Part shown: piece after piece, positions 3,593-47,448 of the stretch
How positions within the stretch are numbered: position 1 is the first letter of the stretch
How the letters are laid out: the number at the start of each line of letters is the position of its first letter
Assembly (NCBI GenBank): GCA_944323265.1
Contig: CALURX010000012.1
Coordinates: 1-48,806 of the forward strand
Direction: 5' to 3'
Length of the DNA: 48,806 nt
Origin: Candidatus Gastranaerophilales bacterium
GTDB taxonomy: Bacteria; Cyanobacteriota; Vampirovibrionia; Gastranaerophilales; Gastranaerophilaceae
Position numbers and translations under genes: made by a program
The notes under the pieces: model-generated
Told to the model about the DNA's origin: nothing
Databases searched by the model: none
The model's input: only the letters and a program-made list of their open reading frames with translations

Positions 3593-4480
3593 ATGAATAT
3601 CGACAATATAGAAATAACGTGCGGTGAGAATATTTATCAAAAAGCCGAAATTAATAAAAACGAAAAAACAATTGATTATGAAACAAGTAAGAATTTGTCA
3701 TACACAGATATTATAAGTATCACAAAAGGCTTGGATGTAATTAGCGAGTTTTTTGATGTAAACGCCGCTGCAACGACTGCAGGTACCGGAATTTGTGCAG
3801 TAGCGCTCGGAAAATCTCTGGAAGAAGCTGTTCAAAAAACTATGGATTCTAATCCGATAGAGTTTATGAATGCGACTGTTGTTGTTTCTGCAGAAGTTGA
3901 CAGTGATATTGCAAAAATCATGAAGAGTTCTAATATTATTGTTGCTCCAAAGTTTACTAAAAATGCTTTAGAGATACTTGAACGAAGGGATATTTGTTAT
4001 GTAACGATAAATACTCCGCTCAAGGATTACAAGAAATTTCTTTCTGAAGATATTAAAGTGACACCGTTAGGAACACTTACTCAGAGCCCGAATACAAGTG
4101 AGCTTACAAAGGATACTTTCAAAGTTGTTTCTAAGCAGAAGCCGACAGTCGAGCAAATAGAAGATGCTGTGTTTGCCTGGAAGATTGCAAAACATGCCTC
4201 TTCACAGGCTATAGTAATCGCAAAAGACTTGAAAACATCAGCAGTATCTCAAGGCCTGCACAGAGCATCAGTAGAGTTTGCACTTGATTATTCCTGTGAT
4301 ATGTCAAAGGAAGCTGTCTTGGCGTCAGATATGCCGATTACGGTACATGATGTTAATGTTGCAGCTCAAGGCCGAATTGGGTTAATCATGATTCCTCAAG
4401 CACCTAAAGATGTATTGGATTTGGCTGATAAGTACAACATTGCAGTAATAGAGACAGGTTTTACAAATATCCTACTCTAA
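3593..4480 (+). CDS. Degenerate AICAR transformylase (PurH C-terminal domain)-like protein
   Basis: A 295-residue protein that aligns with the AICAR formyltransferase half of PurH and lacks the IMP cyclohydrolase half (full PurH is about 510 residues). Recognisable blocks are CGENIYQKAE (10-19, family RYGENPHQKA), KPTVEQIEDAVFAWKIAKH (183-201) and IVIAKD. The catalytic Lys-His block of the family (VKHANPCG) is here AATTAGTGI (about 59-67), so both catalytic residues are gone. The SDAFFPFRD block is SDMPITVHD (245-253). Together these point to a non-catalytic homologue, perhaps binding a nucleotide or regulating. A strong site (AAGGAG) precedes the ATG, and the gene follows the PBP gene by 9 nt. 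The true purine enzyme would have to be encoded elsewhere. Confidence 0.75.
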   Translation: MNIDNIEITCGENIYQKAEINKNEKTIDYETSKNLSYTDIISITKGLDVISEFFDVNAAATTAGTGICAVALGKSLEEAVQKTMDSNPIEFMNATVVVSAEVDSDIAKIMKSSNIIVAPKFTKNALEILERRDICYVTINTPLKDYKKFLSEDIKVTPLGTLTQSPNTSELTKDTFKVVSKQKPTVEQIEDAVFAWKIAKHASSQAIVIAKDLKTSAVSQGLHRASVEFALDYSCDMSKEAVLASDMPITVHDVNVAAQGRIGLIMIPQAPKDVLDLADKYNIAVIETGFTNILL

Positions 4481-7199: not shown

Positions 7200-7904
7200 A
7201 TGAAAAAGCTGAGAGTTGCGCATTTATATCCGAAATTATTAAATATCTACGGTGACGGCGGAAATATTCTTGCGCTTATCAGACGTTGTCAGTGGCGCGG
7301 AATAACAGTTGAGCTTGATGAAATCGGTGTTGGGGATAAAATCGGCAGGCATGATATTTATTTTATCGGAGGCGGGCAGGATTTACAGCAGATAGAAGTT
7401 TCAAAAGAGCTTCTTAAAAATAAAGATTTTTTTACGGAAGAGCGTGACCGTATGGCGGTGTTTTTAGGAATTTGCGGCGGATACCAGCTTATGGGGCATT
7501 ATTACCAGCCTCATAACGGTGAGAGGCTTGAAGGAATAAGTCTTCTAGACGCTTATACGGTCGCCGGGAATAAACGTTTTATCGGGAATGTAACCGCAGA
7601 AACAGATTTGGTTGAACCGCATACACTGGTCGGGTTTGAGAACCATAGCGGGCTTACGTATCTTCAAGGGGATACTGTTCCTATTGGGAAGGTTTTTGTC
7701 GGAAACGGAAATAACGGTGAGGACAAGACAGAGGGAGCTAGATTTAAAAATGTTTTCGGAACATATTTACACGGTTCTTTTTTGCCAAAAAATCCTCATT
7801 TTGCGGATTATATGATAGAGCTTGCGCTCGGTGCTAAACCGGAGCCGCTGGATGACGAAATAGAACTTCTGGCGCATAATTCGCTGGTAAATAAGAAGTA
7901 TTAA
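7200..7904 (+). CDS. gatD: Lipid II isoglutaminyl synthase, glutaminase subunit GatD
   Basis: Class I glutamine amidotransferase subunit of the MurT-GatD complex, which amidates D-Glu in the lipid II stem peptide to D-isoglutamine. It is 234 residues. The family N-terminal motif LYPKLLNIYGDGGN (9-22), nucleophile Cys92 in GICGGYQ and catalytic His191 in TYLHG are all present. CobB/CobQ-like amidotransferases are the nearest alternative, but the N-terminal motif is GatD-like. murT normally lies next to gatD and is absent here; the neighbours are recO upstream and a convergent gene downstream with a 4-nt overlap. Confidence 0.85.
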   Translation: MKKLRVAHLYPKLLNIYGDGGNILALIRRCQWRGITVELDEIGVGDKIGRHDIYFIGGGQDLQQIEVSKELLKNKDFFTEERDRMAVFLGICGGYQLMGHYYQPHNGERLEGISLLDAYTVAGNKRFIGNVTAETDLVEPHTLVGFENHSGLTYLQGDTVPIGKVFVGNGNNGEDKTEGARFKNVFGTYLHGSFLPKNPHFADYMIELALGAKPEPLDDEIELLAHNSLVNKKY

Positions 7905-29277: not shown

Positions 29278-29915
29278 CAGGCTTTTGCACAACTGTCCGG
29301 TAAAAAAACGAATAAAAAAGCAAGACGCAGCAAATGCTGTTCCTCGTATAATAAAGTTGTTGAGACAATAAATTAACAATTATACTATTTGTCGTCCTGA
29401 ATCTTGTCTTGGATTATTCGGGGTGTCGAAAAGTTCTCAGCTTCCCGACACCTTATGGGCTTACTCGTCAAGCCTCGCATCGCCCTGCAGAAAATCCGCG
29501 GTTTAGGACTTTACCAATAGAGCGCAAAGACTTGTAACCGGTAAGATTCCGAGGGGTAAATGTGTATTTGAGTTAGGAGTATGAACACCCGACCGGTAAG
29601 ATTTCGAGGGGTAAAGGGGTAAAGGGAATAAATTCGGGATGACATCTTATTAGAGATAAATACGGACAGTTCTGCCTACTAGGGGAGGGTTAGGGTGGGG
29701 AATAATTGAGCAAACATCTCTAACGAGACGTTCCCAGCCTTCCTAAGCTTGGGGACGGAGCAAAGCCCCGAACTGCCATGTCTTGAATTTTTCGGGTGCA
29801 ACGAAAGAAACTTTTAGGAACAAAACTTTTATTACGTATGTGATGCAACTTTGTTCATCCGAGCTTTCCTTTTATCTTGTACACTATAAAACTCTAAAAA
29901 TAAAATTTGCCAGTC
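29278..29915. other. Noncoding repeat-rich stretch
   Basis: No supported gene in 638 bp. It holds two 24-bp direct repeats (29537-29560 and 29592-29615), a 7-bp hairpin GGTGTCG/CGACACC (29422-29428 and 29446-29452), a GGGG/CCCC hairpin (29751-29769) and a TTCGGGATGACA piece (29632-29643) shared with the palindromic repeat at 35731-35768. It looks like decayed intergenic repeats rather than a gene; several stops break every frame. Confidence 0.6.
29537..29615. repeat. Direct repeat pair, GGTAAGAT-type family
   Basis: Two copies of a 24-bp sequence beginning ACCGGTAAGAT and ending CGAGGGGTAAA differ at one base (23/24). The first half, GGTAAGAT[TC][CT]CGA, recurs at 35735 in the palindromic element there, so these are members of one dispersed family. 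Confidence 0.6.
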
Positions 29916-41995: not shown

Positions 41996-43381
41996 TTAGG
42001 CCTCTTTTCTTGTGATATTGATGATTGCGACATTTTCTATGTGATATGTATGAGGAAACATATCAAAAGGCTGGATATATTCTATCCTACATCCTTTTTC
42101 TTTCAAATATTTTAAGTCTCTTGCAAGAGTAGCCGGATTGCAGCTTACGTATATAATTTGTTTTTTAGTAAGTTTGTACGCATAATCAAGGCTCTCCCCA
42201 GAACATCCCTTGCGTGGAGGATCGAGGATTGTAATATCAAATTTCTGCCCTGACTTAACCTCCTGTTCAAAAAAACGGCCTGCATCCATATTATGAAGCT
42301 CGATATTCCCAATCCGATTTTCTTTCACGACCTCTTGTGCAAGTTCTACGGATTCTTTGACCTCTTCAACACTTACTACTTTGTCTGCAATATCGGAAAG
42401 ACAAATCCCAAATGCCGTAATCCCTGCGTAAGCATCAAGTATTGAAGGGGCAGAAAAATTGGTGGAGACATATTCCTTTATATAACGAAAAATATTGTCA
42501 GCACTTTGGGGATTTACCTGAAAGAACGTTTTAGCTCCGACTTTAAAGATTTTATCGCAGAGTTTTTCTTCTATAAACCCTTCTCCCTCAAGAATTTCTG
42601 TTTTATCACCAAGAATTACGTTTGTGTTTTTTGTATTGAAATTAATCCCCACTCCTGAAATGTTCTCCAGATTTTCATAAATTCTGCGAGCAAGTTTTTT
42701 TATTCCGTCACCGGCGCTTTTTGAATTAACAACTAGAATAACCAGACTTTTTTTATTATATTCTGATGTCCTTATAACAATGTGCCTCAGCTCTCCGGAG
42801 TTTTCTCTATAGCCTGTTACTCCGTAATTCTTTGCCTCGTCCTTTATAAATTCAATAATCTTATCACAATAATCCGGCTGAATAGGGCAGTATTTTATAT
42901 TAACCAGCTCGTGAGTGCCGGATTTATAATATCCTGCAATAATTCTTTTAGAATCTTTTGTCTCCGAGACAGGGTATTGAATCTTGTGCCTGTATTCTTT
43001 TATCTTGGGGCTTGGAATAACCTCTCTTATCTCGGGAATCTCTCCGAGAATATTCCGCATAGTATCTTCAACGATTTGTTTTTTGAACTTAAGCTGCGCA
43101 GTATAATCAATGAATTGCAGCTGGCATGCGCCGCAAATTTTTTGCATAGGGCAAAATGGCTCAACTCTCTCTTTTGATGGTTTTATAACTTCCAGAACTT
43201 TTGCATTAGCATAATTTTTACTTTTTTTGCCGATTCTTATTTTAACCGTATCTCCTGGGCAAGCACCTTCAATGAAGATAACGTAACCATCTATTTTTGC
43301 GATTCCGTATCCGAGGTTTGAAAGTTTTTCAACCTCAACAGTAATTTCTTGCGGAATATCTTTTTTGTTTACTGTTTGCAT
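41996..43381 (-). CDS. rlmD: 23S rRNA (uracil-5-)-methyltransferase, RlmD type
   Basis: A 461-residue SAM-dependent methyltransferase of the TrmA/RumA family. An N-terminal TRAM domain (EITVEVEKLSNLGYGIAKIDG) is followed by an Fe-S cysteine set (CPMQKICGAC and a later CPI), the methyltransferase core, DPPRKGCSG and the SCNPATLARDL block. The family makes m5U in 23S rRNA; RlmD versus RlmCD cannot be separated by eye. It overlaps the upstream exonuclease gene by 13 nt. Confidence 0.92.
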   Translation of the reverse strand: MQTVNKKDIPQEITVEVEKLSNLGYGIAKIDGYVIFIEGACPGDTVKIRIGKKSKNYANAKVLEVIKPSKERVEPFCPMQKICGACQLQFIDYTAQLKFKKQIVEDTMRNILGEIPEIREVIPSPKIKEYRHKIQYPVSETKDSKRIIAGYYKSGTHELVNIKYCPIQPDYCDKIIEFIKDEAKNYGVTGYRENSGELRHIVIRTSEYNKKSLVILVVNSKSAGDGIKKLARRIYENLENISGVGINFNTKNTNVILGDKTEILEGEGFIEEKLCDKIFKVGAKTFFQVNPQSADNIFRYIKEYVSTNFSAPSILDAYAGITAFGICLSDIADKVVSVEEVKESVELAQEVVKENRIGNIELHNMDAGRFFEQEVKSGQKFDITILDPPRKGCSGESLDYAYKLTKKQIIYVSCNPATLARDLKYLKEKGCRIEYIQPFDMFPHTYHIENVAIINITRKEA

Positions 43382-44289
43382 GGTTTGATTATCTGAATAT
43401 TTCTTGTCTCTGAAATTTCCTGTCTTGCATCTTTAATAATTTGTTTGTACTCTTCTGAGAGGCTGAGACCGTTACATAATCTGTCAATAAATCCATTATT
43501 TACTTTTACGGCTTTTTCAAGAGCACCGACATTTTCAAGCACATCTTTTATATCTGCCAAATCATATCCGAATGATTGTTTGGACTGATAAACCATCATC
43601 TCGCCTGTTTCTGCCACAAGCGGTTCTCCCCCAAGTTCAAAATGGAGTTTAAAAATGGATTTCAAATCTTGAAGCTCAGCCTGCATAGTTGCAATGCTCT
43701 GTTGGATTCTTAAGTACCTGTCAAAAAGATAATCTACATTATCAAGTTGTTTTCTCTGCCAATCAAGTCTTTGTAAATATAGCTTCTTAAGTTTCGGATA
43801 CGCAAGCGCAAGTGCCATTGTATCAGCCATAGCTCTATGGTGATTTGAAAGTTCTATATTAAACCTGTGAGACAAAGCCTCTAGTCCGTGGGATTCTAAA
43901 TCAGGTGCAATTTCTTTAAACATAGCCTGTGTATCAATTCTAGGATTTTCAAGCTTCTCGCCGAAAACTCTCATTTTAGCTTCATTCAAAAAAGAATAAT
44001 CAAAAATTGCATTATGAGCAACAATAGGATAATCTCCTATAAAATCAAGAATTTTGGGCAGTGCTTCCTCTTCTGTAGGGGCATCTGCGACCATTTCCTG
44101 TGTGATACCGTGTATTGCCATGCTTGATTTTCGTATGTGCTGCTGGGGGTTAATCAATGTTTGAAACTCATCTTTAATTTTGCCGTTTTCAAGCCTTACC
44201 GCAGCAAATTCAATAATTTTTTCTCTAGTGTAATCTAAGCCTGTTGTTTCAGTATCCAATACAATTTCAATTTCTTTTTTTCTTGGCAT
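43369..44289 (-). CDS. DEDDh 3'-5' exonuclease (DnaQ-like)
   Basis: A 306-residue protein. DxE is at 12-14 (LDTETTGL), the second motif at HNAIFDYSFL and the DEDDh third motif at NHHRAMADTMALA. It is homologous to the epsilon proofreading subunit, but has a long C-terminal coiled region (about 185-300) not found in E. coli epsilon. Whether it proofreads the replicase or acts as a stand-alone exonuclease is not clear. It overlaps rlmD. Confidence 0.88.
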   Translation of the reverse strand: MPRKKEIEIVLDTETTGLDYTREKIIEFAAVRLENGKIKDEFQTLINPQQHIRKSSMAIHGITQEMVADAPTEEEALPKILDFIGDYPIVAHNAIFDYSFLNEAKMRVFGEKLENPRIDTQAMFKEIAPDLESHGLEALSHRFNIELSNHHRAMADTMALALAYPKLKKLYLQRLDWQRKQLDNVDYLFDRYLRIQQSIATMQAELQDLKSIFKLHFELGGEPLVAETGEMMVYQSKQSFGYDLADIKDVLENVGALEKAVKVNNGFIDRLCNGLSLSEEYKQIIKDARQEISETRNIQIIKPCKQ

Positions 44290-44347: not shown

Positions 44348-45244
44348 TTAAAAAAGGTTTCTTTTGATGATCGCTATTTTATAGCTTTGAGTAAGTTTTG
44401 AATTGATATATTTTTTTAATATACCAAATGAAAATTTTTGAGCAAATTTTAAAATATAGTATGTAAAGAGTTCATTTAGCTTTACAGAACTTATTTGAAA
44501 TAAATTATAGTTATTAATTATCGGGGGCGTTTCATCAATATATTTTTCAAAAAAATCCTTACTTTTAGAAATTATTGTAACTATATTAGGAGTAAGAATC
44601 AGATTATCAAGCCCGAATTGCAATTTAAAGATTTGTGCATATGGTGCTTTCAATAGGAGCAATTCTTCATCTTCAGGAAATTCCGGTCTGCATATTGTAT
44701 AATTAAACCCCGCATTTTTGGCTAGGCAGTCAATCGTTAATGGAGTGTAGGAAATAACATGAGTAAAATCATCATACCTGAAAAAATTTGCAGTTGGGGC
44801 AAGGGCATTTGGCACACGAATTACAATAAATCCTTCATTATTTATTTTTTCATATAATAATTTGAAAAAATCAGGCTGTTGCTCTTTTGGAAGATGTTCT
44901 AATACATCTAAGCAGTAAATTACATCATACTTTTCTTCTGTATTTTCTAAATATTCAATGCAATCTGCCTGAATTAAATCTATCCCCTCTTTTTTCCCGA
45001 TACTTATAAAATCTGGATTAATATCTATGCCTTTTAAATTTGTACAGCCCATATCTTGTAATGCTAAAAGGAATCTACCCATTCCGCATCCTAGTTCTAA
45101 TATTTTAGAGGTTTTATTTTTTGGAAGAAGATTATGTAATTCTATTAGAGTATGGTATTGCTGCATATCACTTTTTAGTGACTCTTTATTATTTTTATGC
45201 CAGTTTGAGTAAATCAGTGTATAGTCGAGCGTATTCTTTTGCAT
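44348..45244 (-). CDS. Class I SAM-dependent methyltransferase
   Basis: A 298-residue protein with a Rossmann methyltransferase core: motif I ILELGCGMGRFLLAL (about 48-62), then acidic DINPDF, and motif IV YCLDVLEHLPK. The C-terminal third is charged and helical. The immediate context (a COG5610-like HAD gene upstream, overlapping by 31 bp) suggests a glycan- or lipid-modifying methyltransferase, by inference. Substrate unknown. Confidence 0.82.
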   Translation of the reverse strand: MQKNTLDYTLIYSNWHKNNKESLKSDMQQYHTLIELHNLLPKNKTSKILELGCGMGRFLLALQDMGCTNLKGIDINPDFISIGKKEGIDLIQADCIEYLENTEEKYDVIYCLDVLEHLPKEQQPDFFKLLYEKINNEGFIVIRVPNALAPTANFFRYDDFTHVISYTPLTIDCLAKNAGFNYTICRPEFPEDEELLLLKAPYAQIFKLQFGLDNLILTPNIVTIISKSKDFFEKYIDETPPIINNYNLFQISSVKLNELFTYYILKFAQKFSFGILKKYINSKLTQSYKIAIIKRNLF

Positions 45245-46257
45245 ATTTTTAAAATCCCCTCTATTTGCTTCAATGAAAAGTGTGTATATAAAAGATATTT
45301 AATCTGTCGTTTAAGTTTAACAATTTGTTTGTTTATAAACTTTTTTACCTCGCGAAAGGAGAAACGTGTATTGGGGGACAAAATAAGATATTTAGAACTT
45401 TGGCTGTCTGATGCATGATAAATTTTCCTTAAATATTGACGGTCTTGTATGGTTGCAGTTTTGAGAAATTCCTTAAGAAGATTAAAAATAGTGTTGGGAG
45501 AAAAACAAATAGGTTTGTTAAGAAAAAATTGCGTGTAGTCTTCCGCAAATTCAATAATACCTGTTAGAACATATTTATAGACTTGAATTTTGTATAAATC
45601 ATATTGGTTAGGAGTTTTATATATGGGTTTGCAATTCTTAATATCTGTAAGAGGTAATTCAGGGGCGGTTATTAGGAATTCTGTTAAGTTTACAAGGGGT
45701 ACCTCCTTTTCGGTGAAAAGAGATGTTGCATAGATTTCAGCAGGTAAAGACGTATTATAAGAAAATGCGCAACTATAGAAGCCAAGATATAACTTTTCTC
45801 CAAAAATTTTTTTTAAAAAATAAAGTGATGTATATGCACCTGTTGTCATATCTATAGAGGCTAGTCTTGAGCCTTGAATATTCAAACTGTTTATATATTT
45901 TAGATATTGTTGAAGATTTGTATTAGCATAACTAGACAATTGCGGCAGATATTTCTCAAATATAACTTTTGCCTCTTTATATGTTTTCGGCAAGGTCTCA
46001 AGACCAGTATAAGCTTTTGTTATATCCAATAAATCATAAAGATAATCTTTAGTCTCTCTGTAATCTAAAAAGCATTTTAAATTTAAAATTCTTGGGGCAT
46101 ATATATAATTATTTTCGACAGGTTTATCTGTTAGAATATTGTACACTTTTTGCAAGATATATCCATCTCTTGATACAAATAATAATGAATTTATGTTATT
46201 ATTTTGAACAATTTTTTTTACATTTTCAATATACCCAACAGCAAGAGGACCTCCCAA
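45214..46257 (-). CDS. C-terminal half of a split HAD-family hydrolase (frame lost at repeat)
   Basis: A 347-residue open frame lacking a plausible start (TTG, no ribosome site). Upstream of the TTG the same frame reads SRYWKNLGYHLGG, the conserved joint between the HAD domain and the C-terminal domain in COG5610-type proteins. It is therefore the downstream part of the gene at 46266-47045, disconnected by the CTTCT tract at 46286-46334. The C-terminal domain is unassigned, with Lys-rich helical sequence at its end. It is expected to be expressed only when the tract has 8, 11 or 5 units. Confidence 0.8.
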   Translation of the reverse strand: MGGPLAVGYIENVKKIVQNNNINSLLFVSRDGYILQKVYNILTDKPVENNYIYAPRILNLKCFLDYRETKDYLYDLLDITKAYTGLETLPKTYKEAKVIFEKYLPQLSSYANTNLQQYLKYINSLNIQGSRLASIDMTTGAYTSLYFLKKIFGEKLYLGFYSCAFSYNTSLPAEIYATSLFTEKEVPLVNLTEFLITAPELPLTDIKNCKPIYKTPNQYDLYKIQVYKYVLTGIIEFAEDYTQFFLNKPICFSPNTIFNLLKEFLKTATIQDRQYLRKIYHASDSQSSKYLILSPNTRFSFREVKKFINKQIVKLKRQIKYLLYTHFSLKQIEGILKICKRIRSTIH

Positions 46258-46265
46258 ATGGTAGC

Positions 46266-47045
46266 CTAAATTTTTCCAGTAGCGACTTCTCTTCTCTTCT
46301 CTTCTCTTCTCTTCTCTTCTCTTCTCTTCTCTTCCCTATAAGCAAAAATTGATGATAAAATACTTGTATCTAAGTCGTCGTTTTGTTTAGCAAACAATCT
46401 TTTTTCCCATAATTTGGGAATATTCTGAGAAATTTTGGGGATTAAAATAGCCTTCATTCCAGCCTCTTTTGCCCTATAAAAATCGGCCGTTAAATTATCT
46501 CCAACATGTAAAAACTTTTCAGGTACTATATTAAGTTCCTGTATAACATATTCATATATGTGCTTTGTATTTTTATTTTTGTTGATATCAGAAGATATAA
46601 AAATTTCCGAGATTTCATCATAACCATTGTCTTTTAGAATTTGGCTGATGAAACTTTTCGGCAGGTACATATCAGATATAGCTATAATTTTTTTATTATT
46701 TTTGCAGGCTTTCCGATATAGTCTTTGAATAAATGGATTTGGTTTAAGTACAGATCTTTCAAGTTCCAGCTCGGCTTGTTTTAAGTATTTATATTCGTCT
46801 CTAATCGCATCATATATATCATCGAGCGTAATATCTTCTTTTTGCCTTGCTTTAATTCTAGCCCTTGTCTCTGCAAATATTCTCTCTTTGCAAAAACCTG
46901 AATGTTTGTGCAGGATTTCCAGATGCATGAATAAGTCTTTTGGTTGTTTATACGGTCTTACTAATAAAGTATCAAAAATATCGAAACTTACAATATCCGC
47001 ATATTGTAAGTTTTCTGAAAAATTTTTTTCATTAAAATTAAGCAT
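46266..47045 (-). CDS. HAD-family hydrolase N-terminal part, ending in a phase-variable tract
   Basis: A 259-residue product in the current state. It contains a complete HAD core: motif I SFDIFDTLL with nucleophile Asp22, motif II around AISDMYLP, motif III Lys in NKNTKH, and motif IV HVGDNLTADFYRA. It then reads through the repeat as REEKR repeats and stops at VATGKI, losing the C-terminal domain. Eight instead of nine units would fuse it in frame to the downstream part for a 608-residue COG5610-type protein. A GGAG site and a TATAAT box lie upstream. Members are often found in surface-polysaccharide loci. Confidence 0.85.
   Translation of the reverse strand: MLNFNEKNFSENLQYADIVSFDIFDTLLVRPYKQPKDLFMHLEILHKHSGFCKERIFAETRARIKARQKEDITLDDIYDAIRDEYKYLKQAELELERSVLKPNPFIQRLYRKACKNNKKIIAISDMYLPKSFISQILKDNGYDEISEIFISSDINKNKNTKHIYEYVIQELNIVPEKFLHVGDNLTADFYRAKEAGMKAILIPKISQNIPKLWEKRLFAKQNDDLDTSILSSIFAYREEKRREEKRREEKRREVATGKI
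46286..46334 (-). repeat. Pentanucleotide tract, 9.8 units of CTTCT (AGAAG on the coding strand)
   Basis: Nine perfect 5-bp units at 46286-46330 followed by CTTC. The coding strand reads GAAG then nine AGAAG units. Length 49 nt puts the downstream domain out of frame; 44 or 59 nt would put it in frame, and 54 nt would not. Confidence 0.95.
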
Positions 47046-47130: not shown

Positions 47131-47448
47131 ATGGTTCAGGAAATTAATGTGGATAACTTTGATAAAGAAGTTTTAAATTCAGATAAGTTAACAGTTGTTG
47201 ATTTTTTTGCAAACTGGTGCGGTCCTTGCAGAAAGTTAGGTCCGATACTTGAAGAAGTTTCAGAGGAGCTTGCAGAAAAGGTTAAATTTGCAAAGATTGA
47301 TACTGATGAGAATTTAGATGCCGCAAAAAAATATCAGGTAAGCGGGCTTCCTACACTTCTTGTTTTTAAAGATGGTGAAGTTGTTGAAAGGATGGTCGGG
47401 CTTATGCCTAAAAGCTCTATTATTACAAATATTGAAAAACATTTATAA
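47131..47448 (+). CDS. trxA: Thioredoxin
   Basis: A 105-residue thioredoxin that reduces protein disulfides in the cytoplasm. It has the active-site motif WCGPC at 29-33, cis-Pro in SGLPTLLVF and FKDGEVVERMVG as conserved structural blocks. There is no signal peptide, so it is cytoplasmic. Ribosome site AAAGGAG. The patatin gene starts 14 nt after its stop codon and is probably co-transcribed. Several thioredoxins may exist in the genome, so the symbol denotes family. Confidence 0.93.
   Translation: MVQEINVDNFDKEVLNSDKLTVVDFFANWCGPCRKLGPILEEVSEELAEKVKFAKIDTDENLDAAKKYQVSGLPTLLVFKDGEVVERMVGLMPKSSIITNIEKHL

What the first reader, a model, noticed from the sequence alone, without database searches (positions are those of the whole stretch)
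46266..47045. Phase-variable COG5610-type HAD gene controlled by a CTTCT tract
Nine CTTCT units (46286-46334) break the gene between its HAD domain and its C-terminal domain. Arithmetic on the sequence: with 49 nt the frame stops at VATGKI; with 8 units (44 nt) it joins the downstream frame at SRYWKNLGYHLGG, giving 608 residues; 11 or 5 units would also join; 10 would not. The downstream open frame continues to 45214 and overlaps a methyltransferase gene, as in surface-glycan loci. So repeat slippage would switch between HAD-only and full-length protein, which suggests antigenic or glycan variation. Unlike most such genes the OFF form may still fold as a HAD enzyme.
Basis: partly seen in the sequence, partly recalled or inferred. 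Interest (0 to 1): 0.85.

Follow-up and report, generated by a model that had tools for sequence, protein, structure and literature searches.

The report
Slippage switch inside a ribose-adding enzyme
In an uncultured gut bacterium (Candidatus Gastranaerophilales), a five-letter DNA repeat sits exactly at the joint between the two halves of an enzyme that probably adds ribose to surface sugars, so copying slips at the repeat should couple or uncouple the halves and switch that sugar coat on or off.

Summary
A perfect 49-nt (CTTCT)9.8 tract (46286-46334) splits one minus-strand gene into a 259-aa HAD frame and a 373-codon downstream frame that overlaps a methyltransferase. The frame arithmetic is right: 44, 59 or 29 nt join; 49 and 54 nt do not.

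The gene is better identified than 'COG5610-type HAD'. It is a bipartite PRPP-dependent ribofuranosyltransferase: a HAD phosphoribose phosphatase followed by a glycan phosphoribosyltransferase. The second half's predicted fold matches Bcs3 of H. influenzae b (Z 22) and 7SHG (Z 21), and its catalytic residues are kept.

Five species of the genus carry the same locus, with the same neighbours, as one uninterrupted gene (582-606 aa) without a tract; the tract lies in their variable interdomain linker. The out-of-frame half shows no relaxed constraint.

Supporting cases: the same motif in the interdomain linker of a different HAD enzyme (FkbH-SGNH) in another species of the genus, poly-G tracts in two autotransporter-like genes of this genome, and poly-G/C tracts in this enzyme family in Helicobacter, Spirochaetaceae and Alphaproteobacteria.

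Switching itself was not seen; only one assembly was available. Verdict: probable phase-variable ribofuranosyltransferase, assembled OFF; new variant of a known kind.

The parts
46286..46334 (-). (AGAAG)9.8 simple-sequence tract (CTTCT on + strand), the putative slippage switch; it encodes EEKRR repeats in all three frames
   Evidence: TRF 100% match; frame arithmetic
46266..47045 (-). Upstream frame: HAD phosphoribose-phosphatase (PRP) domain, 259 aa as assembled; nucleophile D22 in SFDIFDT; stops at VATGKI*
   Evidence: Pfam HAD E 1e-6; Bcs3/7shg profile hit of its relatives
45214..46335 (-). Downstream frame (373 codons, no ATG near its start): glycan phosphoribosyltransferase (CriT/gPRT) domain
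   Evidence: AF2 pLDDT 92.6; Foldseek 8a0c E 1.1e-8 and 7shg E 2.8e-7; Z 22.2 and 21.1
44348..45244 (-). SAM-dependent methyltransferase, overlaps the preceding frame by 31 nt; conserved partner gene
   Evidence: Pfam Methyltransf_23 E 7.5e-18; next to the enzyme gene in five relatives
45214..45244 (-). 31-nt overlap of the enzyme gene's end with the methyltransferase start (possible translational coupling)
   Evidence: coordinates; coupling is inferred
47131..47448 (+). Thioredoxin gene, divergent; syntenic marker
   Evidence: Pfam Thioredoxin E 6.7e-33; same position in five relatives
43369..44289 (-). DEDDh exonuclease gene; syntenic marker
   Evidence: Pfam RNase_T E 1.4e-39; same position in five relatives
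41996..43381 (-). TRAM / tRNA uracil-5-methyltransferase-like gene; syntenic marker
   Evidence: seen downstream in L039-L042

Best explanation
The locus is a two-domain ribofuranosyltransferase gene placed under simple-sequence-repeat phase control. In the ON state the N-terminal HAD domain and the C-terminal phosphoribosyltransferase domain are one protein of about 603-613 aa. [quoted passage not shown] a co-encoded methyltransferase probably modifies the product. Slipped-strand mispairing at the (AGAAG)n tract changes its length by 5 nt. One length class in three keeps the domains in frame. The other two end translation just after the HAD domain, so no ribose is added, and translation of the overlapping methyltransferase may also drop. 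The tract sits in a natural charged interdomain linker. Because 5 and 3 share no factor, it encodes the same EEKRR cycle in every frame, so ON forms differ only by whole 5-residue steps in the linker. The assembly shows an OFF form. Shown: tract, frames, orthologues, fold match, catalytic residues. Inferred: slippage, reversibility, glycan target, coupling to the methyltransferase.
For: Tract and frame states. Length far outside the genome's background. Five orthologues with the same neighbours (trxA | gene | methyltransferase | exonuclease) are single frames of 582-606 aa without a tract, and the tract site is their variable linker. The predicted structure of an orthologue puts the site at the joint between two helices, with a confidence dip there. 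The out-of-frame half folds as the Bcs3/7SHG domain and keeps S55, R56, D57, R82, D162 and E219, which align with Bcs3 S678, R679, D680, R708, E818 and E874 (roles in PMC10299916). Divergence ratio of downstream to upstream half is 1.00-1.19 against orthologues, versus 1.01-1.29 between most orthologues. Chance of the exact synonymous codons is 8e-6. The same motif lies in another gene's interdomain linker in another species; poly-G tracts occur in autotransporter-like genes of this genome and poly-G/C tracts in this enzyme family elsewhere. The same CTCTT unit drives Opa switching in Neisseria (PMC3745409).
Against: Only one assembly of the species was available, so no second tract length has been seen. 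The tract is absent from the five orthologues, so it is recent or lineage-specific. The glycan target is unknown; the locus is not inside a large glycan cluster here. Both genomes with this motif in a gene (G000, G030) are in a broken frame, which also fits fixed loss.
Confidence: 0.78

Rival explanations
1. Fixed loss of function: the tract expanded once, the gene is now a young pseudogene and no longer switches.
For: The assembled form is broken; only one assembly was available; orthologues have no tract. G030's tract gene is broken too.
Against: No other stop or frameshift in 373 codons; all seven invariant residues kept; no faster divergence of the broken half; a perfect tract of this kind is itself mutable (Opa rate about 1e-3 per generation, PMC3745409). 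These tests cannot exclude a very recent loss.
Confidence: 0.12
2. Assembly or consensus artefact: the true tract has another length and the gene is simply intact.
For: The source is a fragmented assembly of 106 contigs, and repeat tracts can be miscounted.
Against: 49 nt is short enough to be spanned by ordinary reads (general knowledge). The tract's existence is not in doubt, and a similar tract occurs independently in G030. A mixed population would look like this too, which is the main explanation.
Confidence: 0.05
3. Ribosomal frameshifting on the purine-rich tract makes the joined protein at a constant low rate, without DNA slippage.
For: The tract contains AGA-AGA pairs and runs out of frame.
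Against: AGA is the main arginine codon here (61%), so it is not a hungry codon; there is no classical slippery heptamer; orthologues need no recoding.
Confidence: 0.02
4. The two halves work as two separate proteins in this species.
For: A TTG at 46257 just after the upstream stop could restart translation.
Against: The downstream frame is closed by a stop right before the tract and has no ATG until residue 163. The TTG start would cut off the conserved YW..GY motif. In five orthologues and in more distant family members the halves are one protein.
Confidence: 0.03

Closest known systems
Bipartite PRPP-dependent ribofuranosyltransferases: Bcs3 CrpP-CriT of H. influenzae b (8A0C), Thermobacillus composti 7SHG, Cj1432 of C. 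jejuni
   Same: HAD phosphatase followed by a PRTase-like transferase; sequence-profile and fold matches; catalytic residues conserved
   Different: Here the two domains are in different frames, separated by a simple repeat tract; there is no third polymerase domain as in Bcs3 and Cj1432; it is paired with a methyltransferase; D162 replaces Bcs3 E818
Neisseria opa CTCTT phase variation
   Same: Same repeat unit up to rotation (CTTCT/CTCTT); frame switching by unit number (PMC3745409)
   Different: In opa the tract lies in the leader-peptide region of an outer-membrane protein and, from general knowledge, on the other strand relative to the gene. Here it lies in the middle of a cytoplasmic enzyme, at a domain joint, encoding EEKRR
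Poly-G/C contingency genes for surface glycans in Campylobacter and Helicobacter
   Same: Surface-glycan enzymes switched by frame changes in simple repeats (PMC8437040, listed); H. bilis has C12 in a homologue of this same gene and C12 in its neighbouring methyltransferase
   Different: Pentanucleotide rather than homopolymer; tract placed in the interdomain linker; a different phylum

Membership tests
Bipartite ribofuranosyltransferase (PRP + gPRT) | HAD-type phosphatase domain with the nucleophile Asp of motif I | tested here: met
   Pfam HAD hits; D of SFDIFDT invariant in 30 homologues; profile hit to Bcs3 and 7shg
Bipartite ribofuranosyltransferase (PRP + gPRT) | PRTase-like transferase domain of the CriT/gPRT type | tested here: met
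   Z 22.2 to 8a0c over 312 residues and Z 21.1 to 7shg over 284; ordinary PRTases below Z 10
Bipartite ribofuranosyltransferase (PRP + gPRT) | Active-site residues for PRPP binding and catalysis | tested here: met
   S55, R56, D57, R82, D162, E219 align with Bcs3 S678, R679, D680, R708, E818, E874; E818 is D here
Bipartite ribofuranosyltransferase (PRP + gPRT) | Both domains on one polypeptide | tested here: inconclusive
   Joined in five orthologues; in the window only at other tract lengths
Bipartite ribofuranosyltransferase (PRP + gPRT) | Ribose-5-P transfer from PRPP to a glycan, then dephosphorylation | not testable with these tools
   Needs enzymology
SSR-mediated phase-variable (contingency) gene | Long perfect tract in the coding region, unit not a multiple of three | tested here: met
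   49 nt, period 5, 100% match; outlier in the genome
SSR-mediated phase-variable (contingency) gene | Tract length decides the reading frame of an otherwise intact gene | tested here: met
SSR-mediated phase-variable (contingency) gene | Different tract lengths observed in the same species or population | not testable with these tools
Neisseria Opa-type CTCTT gene | Tract within the leader-peptide region of an outer-membrane protein | tested here: not met
   The tract lies after the HAD domain of an enzyme with no leader peptide evident
Pseudogene | Additional inactivating lesions or relaxed constraint | tested here: not met
   No further stops; divergence ratios as in orthologues; a very recent loss would not show

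The most novel reading that the evidence does not exclude
Gastranaerophilaceae place slippage tracts at domain joints, so that unit number decides whether two catalytic domains are physically coupled rather than whether a gene is simply made. The AGAAG unit is suited to this because it encodes the same charged helical EEKRR linker in every frame. The OFF state would leave a folded HAD domain, and ON states would differ in linker length by 5-residue steps. The evidence is the parallel case in G030 (FkbH | tract | SGNH) and poly-G at a domain joint of a three-domain relative, joined in G333 and split in G330.
Probability: 0.35. Interest if true: 0.75.

Novelty: new variant of a known kind. Interest (0 to 1): 0.64.

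Why it matters
Repeat-slippage switches are known mostly from host-adapted Proteobacteria such as Neisseria, Haemophilus, Campylobacter and Helicobacter (general knowledge). Here is sequence evidence for a set of them in an uncultured gut lineage related to Cyanobacteria, for which the paper searches found no report. It ties switching to a defined reaction, ribofuranose addition, and shows the same enzyme family carrying repeat tracts in several phyla. It can be tested at once by counting repeat units in gut metagenome reads.

Tried and rejected
The first genome-contig scan with the HAD half alone found no relative; the alignment query worked. Searches failed on wrong frames or strands and were redone where needed. 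NCBIfam and Pfam give only generic HAD families for the upstream half and nothing for the downstream half. A separate downstream gene starting at TTG 46257 was considered and rejected because it would lose the conserved YW..GY motif. Promoter and terminator scans were at chance level. Paper searches for phase variation in Gastranaerophilales or Melainabacteria, and for phase variation with ribofuranosyltransferase, returned nothing; the library lacks most subscription journals. COG membership could not be tested because no COG library is on hand.

Full report
Observation. On the minus strand, ATG 47045 opens a 259-aa frame that ends VATGKI* at 46266. Between its HAD domain and that stop lies a perfect (AGAAG)n tract, CTTCT on the plus strand, at 46286-46334: 49 nt or 9.8 units, TRF score 98. 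A second frame is open from just after a stop at the tract's upstream edge to 45214, 373 codons, and overlaps a methyltransferase gene by 31 nt. A 15-nt piece of the tract is expected 0.01 times in a shuffled window. In 1.60 Mb of this genome, period-5 runs fall off steeply and stop at 17 nt, except for a 31-nt intergenic ATAAA tract and this 49-nt one. Given the encoded peptide, the exact synonymous codons would arise with probability 8e-6. The tract is therefore best read as a slippage-type expansion, not as a by-product of coding for a charged linker.

Organism. The window is a whole contig of a 2.24-Mb, 99.95% complete assembly. Two genomes of the same genus carry contigs whose numbers and lengths match records titled Candidatus Gastranaerophilales (G055:C203, 11,241 bases, CALVEE010000203.1; G050:C2, 58,671 bases, CALVAL010000002.1). 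The window's taxon is inferred from this.

What the gene encodes. A profile of seven full-length relatives matches Bcs3, the H. influenzae type b capsule polymerase (E 5e-27), and 7SHG, a polysaccharide ribofuranosyl transferase (E 2e-17). The downstream half was modelled from its own sequence at pLDDT 92.6. It matches the same two structures with Foldseek E 1e-8 and 3e-7 and VIA-align Z 22.2 and 21.1; ordinary phosphoribosyltransferases stay below Z 10. [quoted passage not shown] PMC10299916; PMC11127046). Active-site residues of Bcs3 (S678, R679, D680, R708, E818, E874) align with S55, R56, D57, R82, D162 and E219 of the window's out-of-frame half (numbering in the PDB chain is offset by one). 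R56, D57, R82, D162 and E219 are invariant in 31 sequences.

Orthologues. In five other species of the genus (L039-L043) the same gene lies between a divergent thioredoxin gene and the same methyltransferase and exonuclease genes, and it is one frame of 582-606 aa (in G039 a start other than ATG is assumed, and its methyltransferase is frameshifted). None has a tract. Their interdomain linkers differ in length and sequence, and the window's tract falls exactly there. In the predicted structure of the G039 orthologue the site lies at the joint between helices 229-245 and 253-279, where mean confidence drops to 76. In the model of the window's downstream half the EEKRR repeats run directly into the first helix of the domain.

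Not a decayed gene. The downstream half has no further stop. Relative divergence of downstream to upstream half is 1.00-1.19 for the window against orthologues and 1.01-1.29 among orthologues; one pair, G061/G064, is an outlier at 2.64 with 89% and 71% identity in the two halves, which suggests recombination.

Is switching plausible in this organism? Two autotransporter-like genes in this genome carry a G11 tract about 22-25 codons after their ATG; one (L086, with an autotransporter beta-barrel domain) is out of frame and one (L117) in frame. Several other G/C tracts of 10-11 nt are present. In the genus, G030 has a 61-nt tract of the same motif, but in a different gene. It separates an FkbH-type HAD/GNAT half from an SGNH-like half. 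In 33 of 34 other genomes with a match the SGNH-like half lies in an open frame of 577-618 aa, and the five checked in alignment hold both halves, with the tract site in their linker. In the same family, G330 and G333 carry G10 at the joint between an N-terminal domain and the HAD domain of a three-domain relative, split in G330 and joined in G333 (824 aa). Outside this phylum, the same enzyme family carries C12 in Helicobacter bilis, G15 in a Spirochaetaceae genome and G9 in an alphaproteobacterial genome, the last two in split form. The enzyme-methyltransferase pair recurs in H. bilis and in the Spirochaetaceae genome.

Mechanism. Inferred: slipped-strand mispairing changes the tract by one unit, and one length class in three joins the domains. 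Because 5 is prime to 3, the tract encodes the same EEKRR cycle in each frame, so joined forms differ by 15 nt, or five residues of a charged helical linker. The OFF product keeps the HAD domain, but its substrate is the product of the missing domain, so it is expected to be idle in this pathway. The 31-nt overlap suggests that the methyltransferase may also be affected.

What is not shown. No second tract length was seen for this species. The acceptor glycan is unknown.

Relation to known systems. As an enzyme it meets every tested feature of the bipartite ribofuranosyltransferases except that, as assembled, the domains are not on one chain. As a switch it works like simple-repeat contingency genes; the unit equals that of Neisseria opa by rotation (PMC3745409), but it is not an Opa-type gene. 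The new points are the lineage, the enzyme, and the repeated placement at a domain joint.

Noticed in passing
L038 (G030:C18) 7226-7286: Same-motif tract, 61 nt, in the interdomain linker of an FkbH (HAD/GNAT) | SGNH-like gene; currently split, while the five relatives aligned carry both halves in one frame.
   Followed up: yes
L086 14529-14539 and L117 2480-2490 (own genome, contigs C35 and C46): G11 tracts shortly after the start codons of two autotransporter-like genes; one out of frame, one in frame: probable further phase-variable genes.
   Followed up: partly
L239 1433-1442 (G330) and L240 1420-1429 (G333): Poly-G10 at the joint of an N-terminal domain and the HAD-PRT part of a three-domain relative; split in G330, joined in G333.
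   Followed up: partly
L142 4218-4229 and 6158-6169 (Helicobacter bilis): C12 tracts in a homologue of the enzyme and in the neighbouring methyltransferase homologue.
   Followed up: partly
L159 4888-4902 (Spirochaetaceae) and L161 4369-4377 (Alphaproteobacteria): G15 and G9 tracts that split the same enzyme; in L159 the methyltransferase homologue follows directly. G12 also lies just upstream of the homologue in L149 (Holosporales, 3989-4000).
   Followed up: partly
L069 9917-9952 (G243): 36-nt tract of the same motif in the intergenic region upstream of ftsZ; also three G12 runs in 11.7 kb, each in a near-identical context.
   Followed up: no
L082 7879-7909 (own genome, contig C31): 31-nt ATAAA tract between a pilin-like gene and a bioD-like gene.
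   Followed up: no
window 29607-29626; L087 9187-9210; L119 16088-16111: Recurring short octamer arrays (AGGGGTAA) in this genome, purpose unknown.
   Followed up: no
L039 3420-4229 (G039): The methyltransferase partner gene appears frameshifted without a simple repeat.
   Followed up: no
L041 and L042 (G064, G061): The two orthologues are 89% identical in the HAD half but 71% in the transferase half, suggesting recombination within the gene.
   Followed up: no
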